This document shows positions 24,068-48,132 of a stretch of 64,000 bases of DNA, piece by piece (position 1 is the first letter of the stretch; every line of letters starts with the position of its first letter). The notes under the pieces are model-generated. The model saw only the letters and a list, made by a program, of their open reading frames with translations. It was not told the DNA's origin and did not search any database. The position numbers were made by a program, and so were the translations under genes. The stretch comes from Flavobacterium sp. SCGC AAA160-P02 (lineage in GTDB: Bacteria > Bacteroidota > Bacteroidia > Flavobacteriales > Flavobacteriaceae), in NCBI GenBank assembly GCA_000383355.1, contig KB911124.1, forward strand, positions 62,001-126,000, written 5' to 3'.

Positions 24068-24571
24068 ATGAAAGAAATAATTGACAAAATATCATCATAT
24101 AACTTATTCAATTACTTATTTCCAGGAATAATTTTTGTTATTATTCTTCGAGAAATAACAAATTATGATTTAGTACAAGAAGATAATATTTTAGGTGCCT
24201 TTTTATACTATTTTATTGGTCTAATCATAAGTAGATTTGGCTCATTAATTATTGGAAAAATTCTTCAAAGTAAAAAATTGAAATTTATAAAATTCGCAGA
24301 CTATTCAGAATTCATTTTTGCGAGTGATAAAGACAAGAAAATTGAATTATTCTCTGAAATTAATAATATGTATAGAACGTTAATTTCTCTTTTCTGTCTA
24401 CTATTATTTTCAATACTTTATCAAAAAATTTCCGATTCGCTAAATATATCCGAAAGCCTATCATATATTTTATTAATAATAAGTCTAATTGTTTTGTTTG
24501 TCTTTTCTTATAGAAAACAGACAAGTTTTATAACCAAAAGAGTTGCAACAAGAAATAAAGAAAATAAATGA
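24068..24571 (+). CDS. Four-helix membrane protein, partner of MBL-fold hydrolase
   Basis: The 167-residue product has four predicted membrane helices, at about residues 13-29, 42-64, 103-120 and 130-148. A charged cytosolic-type segment lies between helices two and three, and the tail is basic. I recognise no enzymatic motif. Its stop codon overlaps the start of the next gene by four bases (ATGA), so the two are translationally coupled. The small multi-helix protein next to a nuclease-type fold, inside an accessory region, recalls membrane effectors of abortive-infection systems. That is an inference from context only. Confidence 0.6.
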   Translation: MKEIIDKISSYNLFNYLFPGIIFVIILREITNYDLVQEDNILGAFLYYFIGLIISRFGSLIIGKILQSKKLKFIKFADYSEFIFASDKDKKIELFSEINNMYRTLISLFCLLLFSILYQKISDSLNISESLSYILLIISLIVLFVFSYRKQTSFITKRVATRNKENK

Positions 24572-25497
24572 AGCAAATAATTTTTAATGTTGGAGGTGCA
24601 CTTTCATCTTATATAGAATTTGATGATAAGAAATTACTAGTTGATATTGGAAAAAGTCAAGATTTTAACCCTATTTCTGATTTTTTAAATCCATTGTTTA
24701 TTAAAAGGAATAATAAAAAAAGCACATTTTCTTCAAATAAATTCAAATTAGATCAACTTGTTATAAGCCATCCTCACAATGACCACATTTCAAGCATAAA
24801 TGAATTTGATGAGTTTTTTCACGCAGACTTGTTGACTTGTCCGAATGACAATGATGGAATGCCTGATGGACATAAAATAAATTGGGAGTTATTTGAAGAA
24901 AGTAAAAATATAGATAAATTAAAAGAAATGCTAGTTGGAAGAACTCCTCCTTTAAGAACCACTAGCGACCAAAATGAATTCATATATTATATACCACCAG
25001 AAGAATGTGAAGATGATAAAACATTATCAAATGAAAGTTATTGTAATAACATATCAATCGTTGTATTCCTAATAGTAAACCAACATCGAGTATTTTTTCC
25101 TGCTGACATCCAAAAAGAAGGAATGAAATATTTATTAGATAATAATTTTAATTTAAGAAACAAGTTAAAAGGTGGAGTTGATGTTTTGGTTTCTCCTCAT
25201 CACGGATTACGTTCTTCATTTAGCACACAGATGTTCGGTGAAATGAAAAACGGTAAGACTAATTGTTTGAATGTGGTATCAGAAAAAGTAAATACTTCAG
25301 ACAATAGAGAAGTTGATACAAGATATAGTAAATATGAATATTGTGAAGGTAAAAACGACATTGGTGGAGAAGAAAATCATTATCAAGTTAAGACTTCCAG
25401 AGGGCATATTTTAATTGATTATACCCCAACAAATCAACCAACTTTTGAAATAATAACCGATAATGACGAATTAATTGAAAAGTTTAATCGAATATAA
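24568..25497 (+). CDS. MBL-fold metallohydrolase, ComEC C-terminal domain-like
   Basis: The 309-residue protein has the metallo-beta-lactamase fold. The metal motif HPHNDH gives H68, H70, D72 and H73; the bridging aspartate lies in FPADI (D180); and SPHHG with a following serine-rich stretch is at 209-213. This arrangement, with VVFLIVNQHRVFFPADI before the HHG motif, matches the hydrolase domain at the C-terminus of the competence protein ComEC. Here it stands alone, without membrane segments. Nuclease or phosphodiesterase activity is plausible but not shown. It overlaps the upstream membrane protein gene by four bases, so the two products probably work together. Confidence 0.78.
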   Translation: MKQIIFNVGGALSSYIEFDDKKLLVDIGKSQDFNPISDFLNPLFIKRNNKKSTFSSNKFKLDQLVISHPHNDHISSINEFDEFFHADLLTCPNDNDGMPDGHKINWELFEESKNIDKLKEMLVGRTPPLRTTSDQNEFIYYIPPEECEDDKTLSNESYCNNISIVVFLIVNQHRVFFPADIQKEGMKYLLDNNFNLRNKLKGGVDVLVSPHHGLRSSFSTQMFGEMKNGKTNCLNVVSEKVNTSDNREVDTRYSKYEYCEGKNDIGGEENHYQVKTSRGHILIDYTPTNQPTFEIITDNDELIEKFNRI

Positions 25498-26169: not shown

Positions 26170-29100
26170 ATGAGCACTAGATTTTTCACAAATGACGGAG
26201 AGAATACACTTCTTAATAAATTCAAAGGTGTATTCGAACATAACAAAGACATAGAATATTTTGACGCTTTAGTAGGCTATTTTAGGGCCTCAGGCTATTT
26301 TAGAATTCGGGAGTATCTTAACGATGTACCCAAGATTAGAATACTTGTAGGGATTGATGTAGATAAAATTATTGCAAAGTATAATTCTAAAGGACTTTTA
26401 TTTCAAGGGGATGCAAATCAAACTTTGATTGAATTTCTTAACCAAGCCAAAGAAGATATTCAGACAGCAAAATACTCTAAAGAAGTTGAATCTGGTATTC
26501 TTCAATTCATTGAAGATATTTCTTCCAAAAAAATTGAAATCAAAGCGCATCCAAGCAGAAAACTACATGCTAAAATATATATATTCAAACCAGAAAAATG
26601 GAATGAACACAATCAAGGTAAGGTTATAACTGGGTCTTCAAATTTATCAGACTCTGGCCTTGGTGGTTACGAAGGCAGTAATTATGAGTTTAATGTAATT
26701 CTAGAATCTTACGATGATGTTGCATTTGCCTCAAAAGAGTTTGAAAAACTTTGGGAAGAAGGCATTTCAATTTTACCAATTGAAATTAAAAAGGTAAAAG
26801 AAGATACTTATCTCAATGATAATTTTACTCCTTTTGAAGTTTATATTAAGTTTCTGATTGAATATTTTGGAAAGAGTGTAGAATTCGACCCAAACTCAGT
26901 TACAGACTTGCCAAAGGGGTTTATGCGCTTATCCTACCAAATAGATGCTGTAAATCAAGGTTATGAATTACTAAAAAAGCACAACGGTTTTTTCTTAGCT
27001 GATGTGGTAGGGCTAGGAAAAACAGTAGTTGGAACTTTAATTGCCAAGAAGTTTTTCTACTCCAATGGATTTCCATCACATATTTCAACCATCCTGATTA
27101 TTGTTCCCCCAGCTTTAAAAGAGAATTGGGTAGATACTTTAGATAAGTTCGAAGTAAAGAATTATGATATTATCACTAATGGAAGTTTGCATAAAATAAA
27201 AGACCCTGAAAAATATGATTTAGTCATTATTGATGAAGCTCACAAATTCAGAAACGATACTGCTGAAGCGTATAACGAACTTCAAAAATTATGTAAAACT
27301 AAAACCAAGCAACTTTTACCTGATGTCACTAGAGCAGAAAAAAAAGTAATGCTTATTTCTGCTACACCACTAAACAACAGGCCTTCAGACATTGCGAATC
27401 AAATTTACTTATTTCAAGATGCTAAAGATTCTACACTAGAGGTATCTAATTTACAGCACTTTTTTAGAAAAAAAATAGACGCTTATAAGGCGCTCAAGGA
27501 TAACCCTAACATAGCAGAAGTACAACAATCAGTAAAACATATTTACAAAGAAATTAGAGACAAGGTTATTGCGCCTTTGACTATTAGAAGAACAAGAACA
27601 GATTTAAAGATTCACGACCAGTATAAATTAGATATAGCAGAACAGGGTATTATTTTCCCAGAAATTAAAAAGCCGAATAAACTTTTTTATAAACTGAGTG
27701 ATGCCGCTGATAAGCTTTATGACGAAACCATGTATTTGCTTTCTCATGATGTTGATGGTATCAAATATTTCAGATACCAAGCCATAAAATATTTACTACC
27801 AGATAAAAAACAGAAATACAAGAATGCAGATGTTGCCTCTCGAGCTTTGGCTAGTATGATGAAGGTTTTATTAGTGAAACGTATTGATAGCAGCTTCCAT
27901 GCATTTAAAGCATCTTTAAATAGGTTTTCTAAAGCTACTGCAGCTATGTTACAAATGTTCGATAACGGTGTAATTTATATTGCTCCAAACTTAAAGGTTA
28001 ACGAATATATTACTGAGGGTCGTGAGGACGAGTTGATTGAAAAGATTGCCGATGTAATTGATACAGATCCAACAATAACTGTTTGTGTTCCCGAAGATTT
28101 TGAACCTGTTTTTCTAACAGAGTTAAAACGAGATTTTGAAATTGTAGAATCCTTAAACAAAAGATGGGCTAAAGTGACAGAAGATCCAAAATTGGATGAG
28201 TTCAAAAAAAGGCTTGAAAAGGAATTACTAAATAAAGAGATTAATCCGCAGCAAAAGTTAGTAGTTTTTTCAGAATCAAAAGAAACAACATCATATATTA
28301 CAAATGCTTTAAAGAAGGACGGAAGAACAGATGTTCTAGAGGTGCATGCAGGTAATAGAGATAGGTTAAAAGAGACTATAAAGCTGAATTTTGATGCTAA
28401 CATTCCGCGGGAAGAATATCTTTCGGACTACAAAATAATTATCTGTACAGAGGTATTAGCCGAAGGTGTAAATCTGCATAGATCTAATGTAATCGTAAAC
28501 TACGATACGCCTTGGAATTCTACCAAACTAATGCAACGTATAGGTAGGGTAAACAGAATTGGTTCAGTGGCACCACACATTCATATTTTCAACTTCTATC
28601 CAACAGCGAAGGTAAATAGCGATATCGAATTAGAAAAGAAGGCGATTATGAAGCTACAAGCCTTCCATTCTGCTTTGGGTGAAGACAGTGAAATTTATTC
28701 ACCAGATGAAGAAATTCAATCCTTTGGGCTTTTTGAAAAAGATGTTGACGAAGAAAAAGATGAACGTTTAGCATATCTCATGGAACTGCGAAAGTTTAAA
28801 GAGGAAAACCCTGAAGAGTTTAGACGCATCAGAAACTTACCATTAAAGGCCAGAGTTGGTCGCAAAGACCGGACAAAAAAGAATAGTACCATTTGTTTTA
28901 TAAGAAACCACAGAAGAGATGCTTTTTATTGGGTAAAGGATAACGATGAGTTAGAAGAAATGGGGTTCATTGAAGTTGCGAAAGAGTTTAGAGCAGATCC
29001 ACCAGAACAGAGTATCGATTTACATGAAAAGCACCATAAACAAGTAGGAATAGCTATAAATGACTTTGATGAAAAATTAAAAGAGGAAATGTCTAAAGGA

Positions 29101-29457
29101 CAGGTGGTAGATACTACCCAAGGACCGAACGAAAAAAGAGCGCTTTCATATTTAGACGGATTTTTAAGCTTTCCATTTATTGATGTAACTGAAAAAGAAT
29201 TAATTAAAGCAGCTAAACAGGCTGTAAAAATTGCCAAATTTCAAAAGTTACAACGAGAAATAAATGCATTAAAGCGCAATGCGAAAAAGGATAAAATAAA
29301 ACCTGTGGATTTGTTAGATGCCCTTATTAGAATTATCAACAAATACCCAATAGATACGAACGAATCTAACGCTGCATCGCCAATAGTTACCGTGAAATCA
29401 TTTGAAAAAATGAAACCAGAAATTATCATATCAGAATCGTATTCACATAAAAATTAA
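26170..29457 (+). CDS. PLD-nuclease/SNF2 helicase fusion, restriction-like translocase
   Basis: The 1095-residue protein has an N-terminal phospholipase D-like domain with an HKD motif (H133, K135 in KLHAKIYIF, then GSSNLS at 155-160). A full SNF2-type superfamily 2 ATPase follows: Walker A DVVGLGKT (K284), DEAH box (355-358), SATPLNN (397-403), and motifs V-VI near residues 760-795 (EGVNLH and QRIGRVNRIGS). The PLD domain would be the nuclease and the SNF2 part a DNA translocase. The stop codon is one base before the methyltransferase gene, so they form one operon. The pairing suggests a DNA restriction function. DISARM splits the same domains differently; no drmB-like gene is present here. 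Confidence 0.85.
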   Translation: MSTRFFTNDGENTLLNKFKGVFEHNKDIEYFDALVGYFRASGYFRIREYLNDVPKIRILVGIDVDKIIAKYNSKGLLFQGDANQTLIEFLNQAKEDIQTAKYSKEVESGILQFIEDISSKKIEIKAHPSRKLHAKIYIFKPEKWNEHNQGKVITGSSNLSDSGLGGYEGSNYEFNVILESYDDVAFASKEFEKLWEEGISILPIEIKKVKEDTYLNDNFTPFEVYIKFLIEYFGKSVEFDPNSVTDLPKGFMRLSYQIDAVNQGYELLKKHNGFFLADVVGLGKTVVGTLIAKKFFYSNGFPSHISTILIIVPPALKENWVDTLDKFEVKNYDIITNGSLHKIKDPEKYDLVIIDEAHKFRNDTAEAYNELQKLCKTKTKQLLPDVTRAEKKVMLISATPLNNRPSDIANQIYLFQDAKDSTLEVSNLQHFFRKKIDAYKALKDNPNIAEVQQSVKHIYKEIRDKVIAPLTIRRTRTDLKIHDQYKLDIAEQGIIFPEIKKPNKLFYKLSDAADKLYDETMYLLSHDVDGIKYFRYQAIKYLLPDKKQKYKNADVASRALASMMKVLLVKRIDSSFHAFKASLNRFSKATAAMLQMFDNGVIYIAPNLKVNEYITEGREDELIEKIADVIDTDPTITVCVPEDFEPVFLTELKRDFEIVESLNKRWAKVTEDPKLDEFKKRLEKELLNKEINPQQKLVVFSESKETTSYITNALKKDGRTDVLEVHAGNRDRLKETIKLNFDANIPREEYLSDYKIIICTEVLAEGVNLHRSNVIVNYDTPWNSTKLMQRIGRVNRIGSVAPHIHIFNFYPTAKVNSDIELEKKAIMKLQAFHSALGEDSEIYSPDEEIQSFGLFEKDVDEEKDERLAYLMELRKFKEENPEEFRRIRNLPLKARVGRKDRTKKNSTICFIRNHRRDAFYWVKDNDELEEMGFIEVAKEFRADPPEQSIDLHEKHHKQVGIAINDFDEKLKEEMSKGQVVDTTQGPNEKRALSYLDGFLSFPFIDVTEKELIKAAKQAVKIAKFQKLQREINALKRNAKKDKIKPVDLLDALIRIINKYPIDTNESNAASPIVTVKSFEKMKPEIIISESYSHKN

Positions 29458-29458
29458 T

Positions 29459-32400
29459 ATGGATAAAAGAGACCTTCAAAGACTTCTAAATCAGCCTTAC
29501 AAACAGGAGAATTGGAAACAAATTGTACAATTTGTGTTTCCTAATGTATCCATTCTTTCAACACCCAAAGAATTCCCTATTAATAACGAGAAAATAAAAA
29601 AGTTTCGACAAATAGGAAGTATTCGATTAAATGATGGTAAAAACCTTGCTCTGTTTGAGCTACTACTAGCAGATACTGTTAATATACAGCGTAACCGAGT
29701 AGAGCTAAATAATGAGATATCAAAATACATAGACCAAGAGCAAATTCATGGAGTTTTATCTGTGTTCGAACAAGGTACCGATGATTATCGATTTACCTTT
29801 TCTGCTAGAAGTACTGAATTTGATGAAGAGGAAAGTGATTTTATACAGAAGAAAACAGATACAAAACGATATACCTATGTTTTAGGTAAAAATGAAAGCT
29901 GTAAAACACCTGCAGACCGTTTTTATAAATTAAGTGAGAATAAAGCTGACGTCGATATTAATGCTATTCAACACGCCTTCTCTGTGGAGCAATTGTCAAA
30001 AGAGTTTTTTGATAAATACAAGAAGCAGTTTGATAAATTTTGGAAATACATTGCATCCAAAGATGAATATAAAAACGTATTTCATGCCAACGACCAAGAA
30101 AAGCAGGAGGTTAAAATTAGAAACTTTACCAAAAAACTTCTTGGGCGTATTGTGTTTCTTCATTTTTTACAAAAAAAAGGCTGGATGGGTTGTCCAGAAC
30201 AGGAGTTATGGGGATCTGGTGATAAAAAATTCATGCAAAACCTTTTCAAGGATTTCACTCATAAAGAACAGTTTCATAGTAAATGTTTGGTAGAATTATT
30301 TTACAATACACTCAATGCTAAAAGAGACGAGCAACTATTTAGTTGCGAAGGACTGGAGGGTGCATTAAACAAATCAAAAGTACCTTACTTAAACGGAGGT
30401 TTGTTTGATTCTGATAAACTGGAATCTACAAAAATTGACTTTCCAGAAAGTTACTTTGAAGACTTGTTCGATTTCTTTGGGCAATACAATTTCACTATTG
30501 ATGAGAATGACCCTAACGACCACGAAGTAGGTATTGATCCAGAAATGTTAGGTCATATTTTTGAAAACTTGCTAGAAGATAATAAAGATAAAGGTGCATT
30601 TTATACCCCCAAGGTTATTGTACAGTACATGTGCCAAGAGAGCATTATTGAATATTTAGCTACTAAGTTGTCGGCGGAAACCTCTGGAAAAGTAAAACAA
30701 GCCATTGAAGATTTAATACGAAACCGATTGGCAGAAGAAATCTCCGATTTAGATTTGGTAGAACCAGTAGCACAGGCGCTCTATGATGTGAAAATCTGTG
30801 ACCCAGCTATTGGTTCTGGTGCTTTCCCAATGGGGATTTTAAATGTTATTTACCAAGTTATAGAAGCCTTATTTTATTTACAACCCGTTTCTGTTGCCAT
30901 AGTTTGGGATATCAGTGATACAGAATGGCAACCGCACTTAGTTAAGAAGAACATTATACAGCACAGTATTTATGGGGTTGATATTGAAAGTGGAGCCGTA
31001 GATGTTGCACGTTTACGTTTCTGGTTGGCATTAGTAGTAGATGAGGTAGAGCCCTTACCATTACCTAATTTAGACTATAAAATTATGCAGGGCAATAGCC
31101 TGTTAGAAAGTTTTGAAGGCATTGACTTAAGCCAAATAAGTGATGCAGCTGCCTACGAAGCTATTTATGAAAGTGAGCAAATAGACATGTTTAGTGGTGA
31201 AGCCAAAAAAAAGGTAACGATGTCTTTAAATTTTGAAGATGTTAAAAATCTAATGGATGATTATTTTAATGCCAATGACCCTGAAACAAAAAAAGATTTA
31301 CACAAACGGATTGATGACCAAGTTCTAAACCACATACACTTTACCTTATCTGAACATAAAAATGAAATTAAAAAGAAGGCCAATAAACTAGAAAAAAAAT
31401 TAAGCCTTGTTGAAGCAGCAGCCCGCACCTGGGAGCAAAAAGAAAAGATTAGAACGAGTAGTAAAGCAGCTAAAGAATTAATTAAGCTGAATACTGAGTT
31501 ATCAGAATATGATGAAAAGGAGCATAAACTAGCTCAATTATCACAATCTAATGAACGTCCATTCTTTTTATGGCATTTGTTTTTTCAAGAGGTTTTTGAT
31601 CAAGGAGGCTTTGATATTGTAATAGGAAACCCTCCATATGTAAAAGAATACACAAATAAAAATGCTTTTGATGGTTTACGAAATTCACAATATTATCAGG
31701 GCAAAATGGATCTTTGGTATTTCTTCGGGTGTTTCTGTCTAGACTTATTAAAAGAAAAAGGTGTTGAATGTTTTATAGCACAAAACAATTGGATTACAAG
31801 TTCTGGTGCTTCCAAATTTAGAACTAAAGTTTTAGAGGATACAGAAATAAAAATATTTACTGATTTTTGGAACTATAAAGTTTTTAATTCTGCGGGTATT
31901 CAAACTATGGTTTATTTACTTCAAAAAAGAATGCCAAAAATTAATTATTATTTAAAATATTCTGTTCTTAAAAATGATAGCTTAAAAAAGAGCCATTTAG
32001 TTAGCTTTCTTGATTTCAAAATAAAACAAAAATCATCAGAAAAATTTATATTGAATTTTAATACAGATTCATATCGAAATTCTCTAATAACTTTTAATAG
32101 TCCTATTATCGATAATGTATTAAATAAAATTGCAAATAATGCGGTAAGTTATTTGAAAAACGATGAGGTTGCACAAGGAATTGTATATCCTCAGGATAAA
32201 CTAAACAAGAAAAATTTAAAGAAACTAGGCTCCGATTTTAAATTAAATAATGGAATATTTCAGTTGTCAGAAAAAGAATTAAAAAAATTATGTTTAGAAA
32301 ATAATGAAAAAGAATTAATTAAACCATTTTTTTCCACCAAGCAATTATCTAAATTTTATGCGAATCCTAATAATAATGAATGGGTTATTTATACTAAATC

Positions 32401-32965
32401 AAATATAAAAACACAAATACATTTATATCCAATTATTAAAAAACATTTAGACAAATACAGTACAATAATTACCTCAGACAATAAACCTTATGGCCTTCAT
32501 AGGCCAAGAAATGAAGATTTTTTTCTTGGAAAAAAAATATTATCCCTTAGAAAAACAGAATTTCCTTGTTTTACATATACAGATTTTGACTGTTTCGTTT
32601 CTCAAACCTTTTTTTCTATTAAGACAAATAGGTTTGATTTAAAATATTTGACAGCTATATTAAATTCAAAATTGATTTCTTTTTGGCTTCGTTACAAAGG
32701 GAAAATGCAAGGCAATAATTATCAAGTTGATAAAGCCCCTTTATTAAGCATTCCTCTTTTACCATCAGTTAATGAGTCATTATTTATTGATTTGGTTGAC
32801 AAAATATTGGTACTGAAAGGAGAAGATACTTCTGTTTTTGAAAATCAAATAGACAATATAGTTTATAAATTATACAATTTAACTTATGAAGACGTTTTGG
32901 TTATTGAACCAGAATTTTCAGATCACATGAATAATTACGAATATGAAAAATTTAGGATTGAATAG
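29459..32965 (+). CDS. N6-adenine DNA methyltransferase, Eco57I/PglX-like, with target recognition domain
   Basis: The 1168-residue product has a long N-terminal region of unassigned function (about residues 1-380) and then an adenine methyltransferase core. AdoMet motif I CDPAIGSGAFPMG is near residue 447, and catalytic motif NPPY at about 724-727. A coiled-coil-rich linker separates them (about 600-700). The last 250 residues have the TaqI-like specificity-domain pattern, for example KPFFSTKQLSKF and KTEFPCF. That makes this a Type IIG/ISP-like modification and recognition subunit. The N-terminal region has an ALFELLLAD segment but no recognisable PD-(D/E)xK nuclease. It is transcribed directly after the PLD-SNF2 gene. 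Confidence 0.85.
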   Translation: MDKRDLQRLLNQPYKQENWKQIVQFVFPNVSILSTPKEFPINNEKIKKFRQIGSIRLNDGKNLALFELLLADTVNIQRNRVELNNEISKYIDQEQIHGVLSVFEQGTDDYRFTFSARSTEFDEEESDFIQKKTDTKRYTYVLGKNESCKTPADRFYKLSENKADVDINAIQHAFSVEQLSKEFFDKYKKQFDKFWKYIASKDEYKNVFHANDQEKQEVKIRNFTKKLLGRIVFLHFLQKKGWMGCPEQELWGSGDKKFMQNLFKDFTHKEQFHSKCLVELFYNTLNAKRDEQLFSCEGLEGALNKSKVPYLNGGLFDSDKLESTKIDFPESYFEDLFDFFGQYNFTIDENDPNDHEVGIDPEMLGHIFENLLEDNKDKGAFYTPKVIVQYMCQESIIEYLATKLSAETSGKVKQAIEDLIRNRLAEEISDLDLVEPVAQALYDVKICDPAIGSGAFPMGILNVIYQVIEALFYLQPVSVAIVWDISDTEWQPHLVKKNIIQHSIYGVDIESGAVDVARLRFWLALVVDEVEPLPLPNLDYKIMQGNSLLESFEGIDLSQISDAAAYEAIYESEQIDMFSGEAKKKVTMSLNFEDVKNLMDDYFNANDPETKKDLHKRIDDQVLNHIHFTLSEHKNEIKKKANKLEKKLSLVEAAARTWEQKEKIRTSSKAAKELIKLNTELSEYDEKEHKLAQLSQSNERPFFLWHLFFQEVFDQGGFDIVIGNPPYVKEYTNKNAFDGLRNSQYYQGKMDLWYFFGCFCLDLLKEKGVECFIAQNNWITSSGASKFRTKVLEDTEIKIFTDFWNYKVFNSAGIQTMVYLLQKRMPKINYYLKYSVLKNDSLKKSHLVSFLDFKIKQKSSEKFILNFNTDSYRNSLITFNSPIIDNVLNKIANNAVSYLKNDEVAQGIVYPQDKLNKKNLKKLGSDFKLNNGIFQLSEKELKKLCLENNEKELIKPFFSTKQLSKFYANPNNNEWVIYTKSNIKTQIHLYPIIKKHLDKYSTIITSDNKPYGLHRPRNEDFFLGKKILSLRKTEFPCFTYTDFDCFVSQTFFSIKTNRFDLKYLTAILNSKLISFWLRYKGKMQGNNYQVDKAPLLSIPLLPSVNESLFIDLVDKILVLKGEDTSVFENQIDNIVYKLYNLTYEDVLVIEPEFSDHMNNYEYEKFRIE

Positions 32966-32981
32966 AAATAGAAGAAATTAA

Positions 32982-33260
32982 ATGAAGTTTGACAAAATTA
33001 AAATAGAACAAATTAATCTTGCCATAAAAGATTTCAAGGAAAAAGGCTTTCCAGATGGTTTTAAGGCATCTGCCTATTTTGATGTTGAAATAGATGGTGA
33101 ATTGTATCCACCCAAGCCAATTATGGCCTATGCCAATCATCATGCTACTGGTGAGGAGACTACAAATAACTTTAGTGGTGGTTTAGACACGCCTTGTTTT
33201 AAAGCCTTTGAGCGGTTGGGTATACCTATTATTAAAAAAAAATACTATTCGATAAAGTAA
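32982..33260 (+). CDS. Small restriction-associated domain protein
   Basis: The 92-residue product contains the pattern DGELYPPKPIMAYANHHATG, followed by FSGGLDTPCFKAFERLGI. I recognise this as a small N-terminal domain that precedes HNH or other nuclease domains in McrA/McrB-like restriction proteins; here it is encoded alone. It starts 16 bases after the methyltransferase gene and is followed by a terminator, so it is the last gene of the restriction operon. It may be an accessory DNA-binding subunit or a leftover of a longer enzyme. The protein appears complete, with its own start and stop. Confidence 0.6.
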   Translation: MKFDKIKIEQINLAIKDFKEKGFPDGFKASAYFDVEIDGELYPPKPIMAYANHHATGEETTNNFSGGLDTPCFKAFERLGIPIIKKKYYSIK

Positions 33261-33296: not shown

Positions 33297-33322
33297 AAAA
33301 AAAAGCCCACAAAATGTGGGCT
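33297..33322 (-). terminator. Intrinsic terminator shared by the restriction operon and isochorismatase gene
   Basis: AGCCCACA-AAA-TGTGGGCT forms an 8-bp stem with eight T residues on the minus-strand side. It therefore terminates the minus-strand isochorismatase gene and may also work for the restriction operon coming from the left. Confidence 0.8.
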
Positions 33323-47514: not shown

Positions 47515-47550
47515 AATAAAAAAACCACAACAATTGTTGTGGTTTTTTTA
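47515..47550. terminator. Palindromic terminator after the GH16 gene
   Basis: A 26-base perfect palindrome (13-bp arms, AAAACCACAACAA and complement) is flanked by A- and T-runs and could work in both directions. It resembles the terminator downstream of tRNA-Ser at 48011. Confidence 0.85.
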
Positions 47551-47563
47551 TTGCAAAGACGAA

Positions 47564-47984
47564 GGGAGTAACTTCGTTGATCCCAAATGGGTATCTTGAT
47601 CAAGCATGAAAACCCAAAAATAGCTGCGCTCTTTTATTTTTTGTTTCTCAAAACTTTCAAAACAATATCAGGGAGTAACTTCGTTGATCCCAAATGGGTA
47701 TCTTGAGCAAGCATGAAAACCCAAAAATAGCTGCGCTCTTTTATTTTTTGTTTCTCAAAACTTTCAAAACAATATCAGGGAGTAACTTCGTTGATCCCAG
47801 ATGGGTATCTTGAACAAGCATAAAAACCCAAAAATAGCTGCGCTCTTTTATTTTTTGTTTCTCAAAACTTTCAAAACAATATCAGGGAGTAACTTCGTTG
47901 ATCCCAAATGGGTATCTTGAGCAAGCATGAAAACCCAAAAATAGCTGCGCTCTTTTATTTTTTGTTTCTCAAAACTTTCAAAAG
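47564..47984. repeat. Four-unit tandem repeat of 107 bp beside tRNA-Ser
   Basis: Units begin with GGGAGTAACTTCGTTGATCC at 47564, 47671, 47778 and 47885, an exact 107-bp period. Differences are few (for example GATCAAGC, GAGCAAGC and GAACAAGC in successive units). The last unit passes into the tRNA-Ser terminator. On the minus strand short open frames cross the array, but they are repeat-driven and not credible genes. The stretch 47495-48044 is otherwise gene-free. Confidence 0.93.
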
Positions 47985-48010
47985 CAAGCTTTTGACGTGT
48001 TGAGAAACAA

Positions 48011-48040
48011 AAAAACCGCAACTTTCGTTGCGGGTTTTCT
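48011..48040 (-). terminator. Terminator of the rpsP-rimM-tRNA-Ser transcript
   Basis: CCGCAAC-TTTC-GTTGCGG forms a 7-bp stem flanked by A- and T-runs just after the 3' end of tRNA-Ser on the minus strand. Confidence 0.8.
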
Positions 48041-48044
48041 TTTG

Positions 48045-48132
48045 CAGAGAGGAAGGGATTCGAACCCTCGATACCCTTGAGAGGTATACACACTTTCCAG
48101 GCGTGCGCCTTCGACCACTCGGCCACCTCTCT
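48045..48132 (-). tRNA. tRNA-Ser (anticodon GGA)
   Basis: The 88-base gene folds as a class II tRNA. The acceptor stem AGAGAGG pairs with CCTCTCT. There are a GGCCGAGTGG D-region, the anticodon loop CCTGGAAAG with anticodon GGA, a long variable arm (TACCTCTCAAGGGTA) and the T-arm GGGTTCGAATCCC. The 3' CCA is not encoded, as usual in this phylum. The 5' end overlaps the last two bases of the rimM stop codon, so it must be processed from the rpsP-rimM transcript or have a promoter inside rimM. Confidence 0.95.

What the first reader, a model, noticed from the sequence alone, without database searches (positions are those of the whole stretch)
26170..33260. Three-gene restriction-like operon: PLD-SNF2 translocase, adenine methyltransferase with specificity domain, and a stand-alone McrA-type head domain
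Seen: an intact HKD motif, all SNF2 motifs, AdoMet motif I and NPPY, a TaqI-like C-terminal region, a 92-residue YPPK/FSGG domain protein, and spacings of 1 and 16 bases. Known: Type ISP enzymes (for example LlaBIII) fuse Mrr nuclease, SNF2 translocase, methyltransferase and specificity domain in one chain. Inference: this operon is a split version in which the nuclease has been replaced by a PLD domain, with an extra small subunit. It may be related to published SNF2-PLD restriction-like systems, but I cannot verify that here.
Basis: partly seen in the sequence, partly recalled or inferred. Interest (0 to 1): 0.75.

Follow-up and report, generated by a model that had tools for sequence, protein, structure and literature searches.

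The report
DNA-cutting defence operon with swappable parts
A bacterium carries a two-gene DNA-marking and DNA-cutting defence unit that recurs across its phylum, followed by a tiny third gene that is not a standard part of it but a stand-alone copy of a poorly understood domain from another class of DNA-cutting enzymes.

Summary
In detail: three same-strand genes at 26170-33260, 1 and 16 bases apart. Gene 1 is a PLD nuclease fused to an SNF2 motor, gene 2 an Eco57I/TaqI-type adenine methyltransferase with a specificity domain, gene 3 a 92-residue protein. Genes 1+2 are a conserved pair (32 of 40 relatives). Gene 3 is not part of that core: none of the relatives read has it there (four of the 32 end before the slot). 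SMC-like ATPases, KAP NTPases and others fill the slot instead. Six relatives carry an inverted spare specificity domain beside a serine recombinase; flipping it in silico keeps the methyltransferase full length in 6 of 6. This suggests that one exchangeable domain steers both methylation and cutting, as in Type I/ISP systems. Hma/BREX-related membership fails (no DUF499 in 20 of 20 genomes). Verdict: a split, Type ISP-like ATP-dependent restriction system with a variable accessory slot, here holding a lone head domain whose role, if any, is unknown.

The parts
26170..29457 (+). Gene 1: N-terminal PLD nuclease domain fused to SNF2-type SF2 motor (1095 aa); C-terminal region after about residue 880 unassigned
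   Evidence: PADLOC family C3a139 'HKD+Snf2' over residues 35-945, E 1e-35; phrog_26785 (no function given) over 2-988, E 4e-127
26566..26694 (+). PLD active-site residues H133, K135, GSSN155-158, E173, N175 (HxK...GSSN...E.N)
   Evidence: invariant in 39 of 39 aligned proteins; D of HxKx4D absent
26998..27024 (+). Walker A of the SNF2 motor (residues 277-285, ADVVGLGKT)
29459..32965 (+). Gene 2: Eco57I-type N6-adenine methyltransferase with N-terminal domain and C-terminal TaqI-like specificity domain (1168 aa)
   Evidence: MTase core matches CamA, M.BseCI, BrxX, LlaGI/LlaBIII (model of low confidence)
30797..30826 (+). AdoMet motif I (residues 447-456)
31628..31639 (+). Catalytic NPPY (residues 724-727)
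   Evidence: 30 of 30
31949..32758 (+). Specificity (TRD) region, about residues 831-1100, fast-diverging and exchanged between relatives
32982..33260 (+). Gene 3: stand-alone ScoMcrA-type head domain (92 aa)

Best explanation
Genes 1 and 2 are a two-subunit, ATP-dependent restriction-modification system that works like a split Type ISP enzyme. The methyltransferase subunit reads a sequence through its single specificity domain and protects it by N6-adenine methylation; on unmethylated sites it loads the PLD-SNF2 subunit, which moves along DNA and cuts with its PLD domain. With one PLD domain per chain, a double-strand cut should need two subunits, in one complex or after two complexes meet (inferred from CglI and, recalled, other PLD nucleases). 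The position after the methyltransferase, and the one between the two genes, are variable accessory slots. In this genome the accessory is a 92-residue head domain that elsewhere mostly caps McrB-type proteins; I think it most likely a small sensor or docking module added to the core, not an essential subunit. Shown by sequence: the pairing, the intact motifs, the variable slots, TRD exchange and invertible TRDs in relatives, and the head fold. Inferred: restriction activity, shared specificity, translocation, and any role of the head.
For: Pairing: MTase downstream of gene 1 in 32 of 40 relatives (in L037 only a broken piece); of the other eight, contigs of L060, L067 and L069 end at or within 0.6 kb of gene 1 and L057 ends inside an MTase start. 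Gene 1 lies upstream of the MTase in 6 of 8 MTase-bearing viral contigs, once with a gene between. Motifs invariant. One specificity domain: TRD identity to the window is 12-29% in 26 of 29 relatives but 48-53% in three, of which L061 has only 22% in the N-terminal domain, so TRDs are swapped. Six relatives have an inverted TRD piece and an adjacent serine recombinase (L039, L040, L047, L150; L166, L169); inversion at the longest exact repeat (20-261 bases) gives full-length MTases of 1082-1169 aa in 6 of 6, against truncation (600 and 662 aa) at chance repeats of 14 and 12 bases in the window and L046, and no repeat in L041 and L161. If cutting had its own specificity, each flip would expose the host's own sites. 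Variable slots: SMC-like ATPase (L032, L038, L041, L042, L045, L054, L140), KAP NTPase (L033, L034), YhcG nuclease between the genes (L032, L037, L043); SMC-like ATPase also in L161, L164, L165.
Against: No activity, methylation or phage data. The curated NCBIfam models are not met (DrmD 156 of 610 bits, anti-phage PLD protein 135 of 1100). The gene order is not universal: in a Thermus plasmid (L142) the MTase lies upstream of gene 1, and the MTase of viral contig L148 has no gene 1 nearby. A first inversion in L047, at the outer ends of its imperfect repeat, gave a truncated 784 aa. The window's own TRD is not invertible. The pair could act without conventional cleavage. The head has no conserved link with the pair: genome-level co-occurrence outside the window's genome is 3 of 394 against 1.3 expected (P 0.13; 4 of 395, P 0.045 with it) and, in the family, none besides the window's own.
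Confidence: 0.62

Rival explanations
1. The small gene is a remnant: the 5' piece of a lost head-McrB gene that a deletion left behind the operon, without function.
For: In most relatives the head is the N-terminus of a longer protein: 22 of the 24 genomes found in the family have one in an open frame of 591 aa or more, the others being the window and G417, with G594 at 270 aa (21 such, plus these three). In G262 and G100, relatives of the same operon and of one family, a head-McrB gene lies about 14 and 9 kb downstream on the same strand. One apparent stand-alone head, L088/L098 (158 aa), proved to be a broken form of the 782-aa gene seen in L097.
Against: The ORF is complete, ends at the domain boundary with two stop codons in a row, aligns over its whole length with other heads, sits 16 bases behind the MTase, and no McrB-like stretch follows it. 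Another short head (96 aa, L133) lies before a separate McrB-like gene, though a frameshift there is possible.
Confidence: 0.3
2. The pair is a BREX/DISARM-like exclusion system (methyltransferase plus SNF2 helicase) in which no sequence-specific double-strand cut is made.
For: Gene 1's best PADLOC model is DrmD (E 7e-38) and gene 2 scores with PglX and DrmMI models; the MTase core matches BrxX.
Against: DrmD and PglX scores are far below NCBIfam cut-offs; PLD residues are invariant in 39 of 39; no other BREX or DISARM gene appeared among the 17 window proteins scanned with Pfam, but the rest of the window and genome were not searched for them.
Confidence: 0.2
3. Gene 2 alone is a Type IIG restriction enzyme with its own N-terminal nuclease, and gene 1 is an accessory motor.
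For: PADLOC's best match for gene 2 is a Type IIG model (E 4e-77) with its best stretch at residues 44-370.
Against: The candidate D-ExK positions are not conserved (D59 in 17, E67 in 10, K69 in 6 of 30; L69 in the window). That these are the catalytic positions is my inference, and the MTase model is too poor to settle it.
Confidence: 0.1

Closest known systems
Type ISP restriction enzymes (LlaGI, LlaBIII)
   Same: SF2 motor, N6-MTase and one TRD; the MTase core aligns with 5ffj (Z 17.7) and 4xqk (Z 17.5). That one TRD serves both activities is recalled for Type ISP and inferred here
   Different: Two separate chains here, and a PLD nuclease in place of the Mrr-type nuclease (Mrr recalled)
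Hma / DUF499-centred BREX-related Type 2 systems (PMC12839542: sections 28 and 30 and passages read)
   Same: HKD-SNF2 fusion plus N6-MTase, proposed there to act like an RM system
   Different: No DUF499 ATPase in this genome or 19 relatives; the HmaA model's best stretch is residues 650-837 only
CglI / NgoAVII (PMC5737866: abstract and outline; PMC4267653: search listing)
   Same: ATP-dependent restriction with nuclease, helicase-like ATPase and MTase; two CglI complexes are thought to be needed for a double-strand break. That its nuclease is PLD-type is recalled
   Different: There nuclease and ATPase are separate proteins; here PLD and SNF2 are one chain
ScoMcrA head domain (PDB 5zmm; PMC6224610: passages read)
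   Same: Same fold, VIA Z 9.3 over 73 residues; weak profile match to residues 3-93
   Different: In ScoMcrA it is one of four domains, small, flexible and of unknown function; here it is a protein on its own
CxC ABC-ATPase systems / PbeABCD (PMC10853773: passages read)
   Same: HKD fused to an SF2 helicase beside an ABC ATPase and, in some, methylases
   Different: Those are centred on an ABC ATPase and DndE; the window has no ABC ATPase next to the pair
PADLOC family C3a139 'HKD+Snf2'
   Same: Covers gene 1 residues 35-945, E 1e-35, so this kind of protein has been collected before
   Different: I could not learn which system it belongs to or whether it includes a methyltransferase

Membership tests
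Type ISP restriction enzyme | Nuclease, motor, MTase and TRD in one chain | tested here: not met
   Two separate genes
Type ISP restriction enzyme | N-terminal Mrr-type nuclease | tested here: not met
   PLDc_2 instead; no Mrr match in Pfam at E 1
Type ISP restriction enzyme | SF2 motor plus N6-MTase with TaqI-like TRD | tested here: met
Hma / BREX-related Type 2 | DUF499 AAA+ ATPase | tested here: not met
   PF04465 absent from 20 of 20 genomes that carry gene 1; the control search finds it in Thermotoga maritima. The window's assembly is 89% complete
Hma / BREX-related Type 2 | HKD nuclease fused to SNF2 helicase | tested here: met
   (without the D of HKD)
Hma / BREX-related Type 2 | Stand-alone DUF3780 gene | not tested
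   Not searched genome-wide; no such hit among the 17 window proteins scanned with Pfam
DISARM class 1 | DrmD equivalog score | tested here: not met
   156 bits against a cut-off of 610
DISARM class 1 | drmA, drmB, drmC | not tested
   Not searched genome-wide
Type IIG restriction enzyme (gene 2) | Active N-terminal PD-(D/E)xK nuclease | tested here: inconclusive
   Candidate motif not conserved; N-terminal fold not searched on its own
ScoMcrA head domain | Sequence and fold of 5zmm residues 3-93 | tested here: met
   Best profile hit though weak, E 0.026; Foldseek ranks 1-3, E 0.02-0.5; VIA Z 9.3, next entry 2.3
Type IV (McrA/McrBC) restriction enzyme | Nuclease or McrB GTPase domain in gene 3 | tested here: not met
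   92 aa, head only; no McrB-like stretch follows it

The most novel reading that the evidence does not exclude
The lone head domain is a transferable licence or sensor subunit: taken from modification-dependent (Type IV) enzymes, it stands where close relatives of this operon carry an SMC-like ATPase, and gives a methylation-protected restriction system the power to respond to a DNA modification or phage signal. That would be a first function for the ScoMcrA head domain and a bridge between Type I/ISP-like and Type IV restriction.
Probability: 0.15. Interest if true: 0.75.

Novelty: new variant of a known kind. Interest (0 to 1): 0.5.

Why it matters
Gene 1 has matches at E 1e-40 or better in 44 of 395 sampled genomes of the phylum, yet it misses the curated cut-offs of the named systems tested. 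Relatives with an invertible specificity domain make the central question testable: if flipping the domain changes methylation and restriction together, one domain steers both. The head domain, called of unknown function in PMC6224610 (passages) and without a shared Pfam family among 12 members, could be studied here as a 92-residue protein.

Tried and rejected
Hma / BREX-related Type 2 and DISARM were tested and rejected as names. A remnant reading of gene 3 was tested by looking for McrB-like sequence behind it (none) but is not excluded. The 158-aa head of L088/L098 was first taken as a second stand-alone case and dropped when L097 showed a fused 782-aa gene. Looking for the integration site with the right-flank gene gave only weak partial matches in 4 of 6 genomes. 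A single-protein search of viral contigs found no relative of gene 3. The MTase model is poor (mean pLDDT 54), so only its MTase core matches are used; that no nuclease is listed for its N-terminus means nothing. PMC12942858 (passages) proved unrelated. The tree (quick method) was made before the closer relatives L161-L163 were known. Of 45 gene 1 matches outside the window's genome, five were not fetched (G321, G128, G337, G228 and the fragment G333:C380). The gene 1 alignment drops two of the 40 loci (L058 and L064, too short) and the MTase alignment holds 29 of them. Family names of many ORFs were not tested: Pfam was run on 40 proteins of relatives (ten per call, less those on head proteins), the rest judged by length or similarity.
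Full report
What is there. The window lies in a genome of 2.54 Mb in 80 contigs, 89% complete. It belongs to the same family as G068, whose contig has the same length (355,078) and match place as one of Flavobacterium sinopsychrotolerans, so it is most likely a member of the Flavobacteriaceae outside the genus of G068. Three same-strand genes stand at 26170-29457, 29459-32965 and 32982-33260, with 1 and 16 bases between them. Flanking genes include a nitroreductase, a DJ-1/PfpI protein, an isochorismatase-like protein and an AraC regulator. By eye, a terminator-like inverted repeat at 33305-33321 follows; the run of A before it suits the convergent gene.

Gene 1. PLDc_2, SNF2-related and Helicase_C domains are found. 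In 39 aligned proteins, the window's included, H133, K135, G155-N158, E173 and N175 and core helicase residues are invariant. The Asp that would complete HxKx4D is missing: K140 here, R in 19 of 39. 'Intact HKD' is therefore too strong, but the site is under strong constraint.

Gene 2. Eco57I MTase and TaqI_C domains; motif I and NPPY are conserved in 30 of 30 aligned proteins. The AlphaFold model is weak (mean pLDDT 54); its MTase core matches CamA, M.BseCI, BrxX and the Type ISP enzymes LlaGI and LlaBIII. The stretch where a Type IIG nuclease motif might lie does not keep a D-ExK pattern.

Gene 3. Nothing reaches a cut-off in Pfam or NCBIfam, and PADLOC and PHROGs list nothing. Of the 12 head domains scanned against Pfam, four families each match one member, the best at E 0.0005, and none is shared. 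Homologues occur in 13 of 395 genomes of the phylum, the window's own included and the two weakest doubtful, and in 24 of 397 of the family. Most are N-terminal parts of long proteins. Pfam was run on three of nine long ones from the phylum search: all have AAA domains, one also EVE and one also MrcB_N; a shorter one has HNH. A profile of 12 head domains finds ScoMcrA residues 3-93 as best solved structure, at the weak E of 0.026. The model (mean pLDDT 81) has ScoMcrA at Foldseek ranks 1-3, E 0.02-0.5, and VIA Z 9.3, the next entry 2.3. PMC6224610 (passages) calls this domain small, flexibly attached and of unknown function. The closest relative found (52% identity) is a 270-aa protein behind a Type I restriction operon and a protein with a weak PLD match (L134).

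Is the trio a unit? Gene 1 has matches in 44 of 395 genomes of the phylum at E 1e-40 or better, the window's included. I fetched 40 of the 45 matches outside the window's genome. The MTase follows in 32 of 40, by a profile that includes many of those same proteins; a search with the window's MTase alone gives the same picture. In L037 the MTase is only a broken piece. Of the other eight, the contigs of L060, L067 and L069 end at or within 0.6 kb of gene 1, L057 ends inside an MTase start, L064 is a fragment, L062 and L070 have unidentified proteins of 1098 and 1198 aa in place, and L066 has none. In viral contigs 6 of 8 MTase loci carry gene 1 upstream, in one case with a gene between; L148 has none and L152 is cut. 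On plasmids, L141, L143 and, with a weak MTase score, L144 have the pair; in L142 (Thermus) the order is reversed. Gene 3 is not among the genes listed after gene 1 in any of the 40 loci or of eight further ones; in four of the 32 with an MTase the contig ends before the next gene (L035, L036, L044, L058), and L163 has only 0.6 kb left.

Variable slots. After the MTase stand SMC-like ATPases (L032, L038, L041, L042, L045, L054, L140; by similarity also L161, L164, L165), KAP NTPases (L033, L034), a DUF3800 protein (L053) or others; between the genes stand YhcG/DUF1016 nucleases (L032, L037, L043) or a Schlafen/AlbA_2 protein (L140). On the gene 1 tree two of the window's three nearest rows, L032 and L140, have SMC-like ATPases in the third place; the third, L146, was not tested there. 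L161, 59% identical in gene 1, has one too. So the window's lineage has a different occupant of a changing slot.

Specificity domain. Against the window's MTase, 26 of 29 relatives have 12-29% identity in residues 831-1100, but L038, L046 and L061 have 48-53%; L061 has only 22% in the N-terminal domain and 39% in the core. This is the pattern of specificity-domain exchange. Six relatives (L039, L040, L047, L150, L166, L169) carry an oppositely oriented piece of this domain (only 138 and 158 aa in L039 and L040) and an adjacent serine recombinase. Inverting the segment at the longest exact repeat, 20-261 bases, gives full-length MTases of 1082-1169 aa in all six. As controls, the window and L046 give truncated products at chance repeats of 14 and 12 bases, and L041 and L161 have no repeat. 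An earlier try in L047 at the outer ends of its imperfect repeat gave only 784 aa; L143, which has inverted pieces but no recombinase found in range, gave 1054 aa from 1112. L062 has such a cassette on another MTase nearby. The window itself is not invertible. Switching methylation specificity would expose host DNA if the nuclease had its own recognition, so the cutter most likely takes its specificity from gene 2. This step is inference.

Head and pair together. Outside the window's genome both occur in 3 of 394 genomes against 1.3 expected (P 0.13); with it, 4 of 395 (P 0.045), but the window was chosen for having both. In two of them, G262 and G100 of one family, a head-McrB gene lies about 14 and 9 kb downstream on the same strand. 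In the window's family the 24 head genomes and 9 gene 1 genomes share only the window's own. There is thus no statistical support for a functional link, and a remnant cannot be excluded.

Known systems. PMC12839542 (sections 28 and 30 and passages) describes HKD-SNF2 plus N6-MTase plus DUF499 systems (Hma); DUF499 is absent from 20 of 20 genomes here. PMC10853773 (passages) describes HKD-SF2 fusions in ABC-ATPase systems. PMC2292703 (passages) noted HKD domains on a few type III-like helicases. PADLOC already holds a family labelled HKD+Snf2 that covers most of gene 1, so the protein kind is not new. CglI (PMC5737866, abstract and outline) is a biochemical precedent for ATP-dependent restriction in which two complexes must communicate. 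I conclude: a split, Type ISP-like system, not a member of Type ISP as defined, with a variable accessory slot.

Noticed in passing
window 24068-25497: Small membrane-protein-like gene and MBL-fold gene overlapping by 4 bases; they match the PADLOC candidate families PDC-M48A (E 1e-65) and PDC-M48B (E 2e-12), so the operon sits beside another candidate defence system.
   Followed up: no
L039, L040, L047, L150, L166, L169: Inverted spare pieces of the specificity domain with a serine recombinase behind the MTase; predicted switchable restriction specificity.
   Followed up: yes
L134 8827-18244: Type I operon (HsdM, OLD-like ATPase, HsdS, HsdR) followed by a protein with a weak PLD match and a 270-aa head-domain protein, the closest relative found of gene 3.
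   Followed up: partly
L088 4555-11690: Flavobacterium locus with an 870-aa protein carrying an adenosine-deaminase-like region, a PLD protein, a short (broken) head gene, EVE-McrB and McrC in a row.
   Followed up: no
L161 4726-5004, L162 14258-14536, L163 1999-2277: A 92-aa gene, helix-turn-helix-like by eye, overlaps the start of gene 1 by 4 bases in the closest relatives; the window has no ORF of 60 aa or more in that place.
   Followed up: no
window 47515-47552 and 47958-48014: Palindromes just beside the tRNA-Ser gene at 48044-48132.
   Followed up: no
Head domains in L085-L087, L089-L095: A conserved N-terminal domain with an invariant PPK in the 12 aligned members recurs in long AAA-type and HNH proteins, with no shared Pfam family.
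   Followed up: partly
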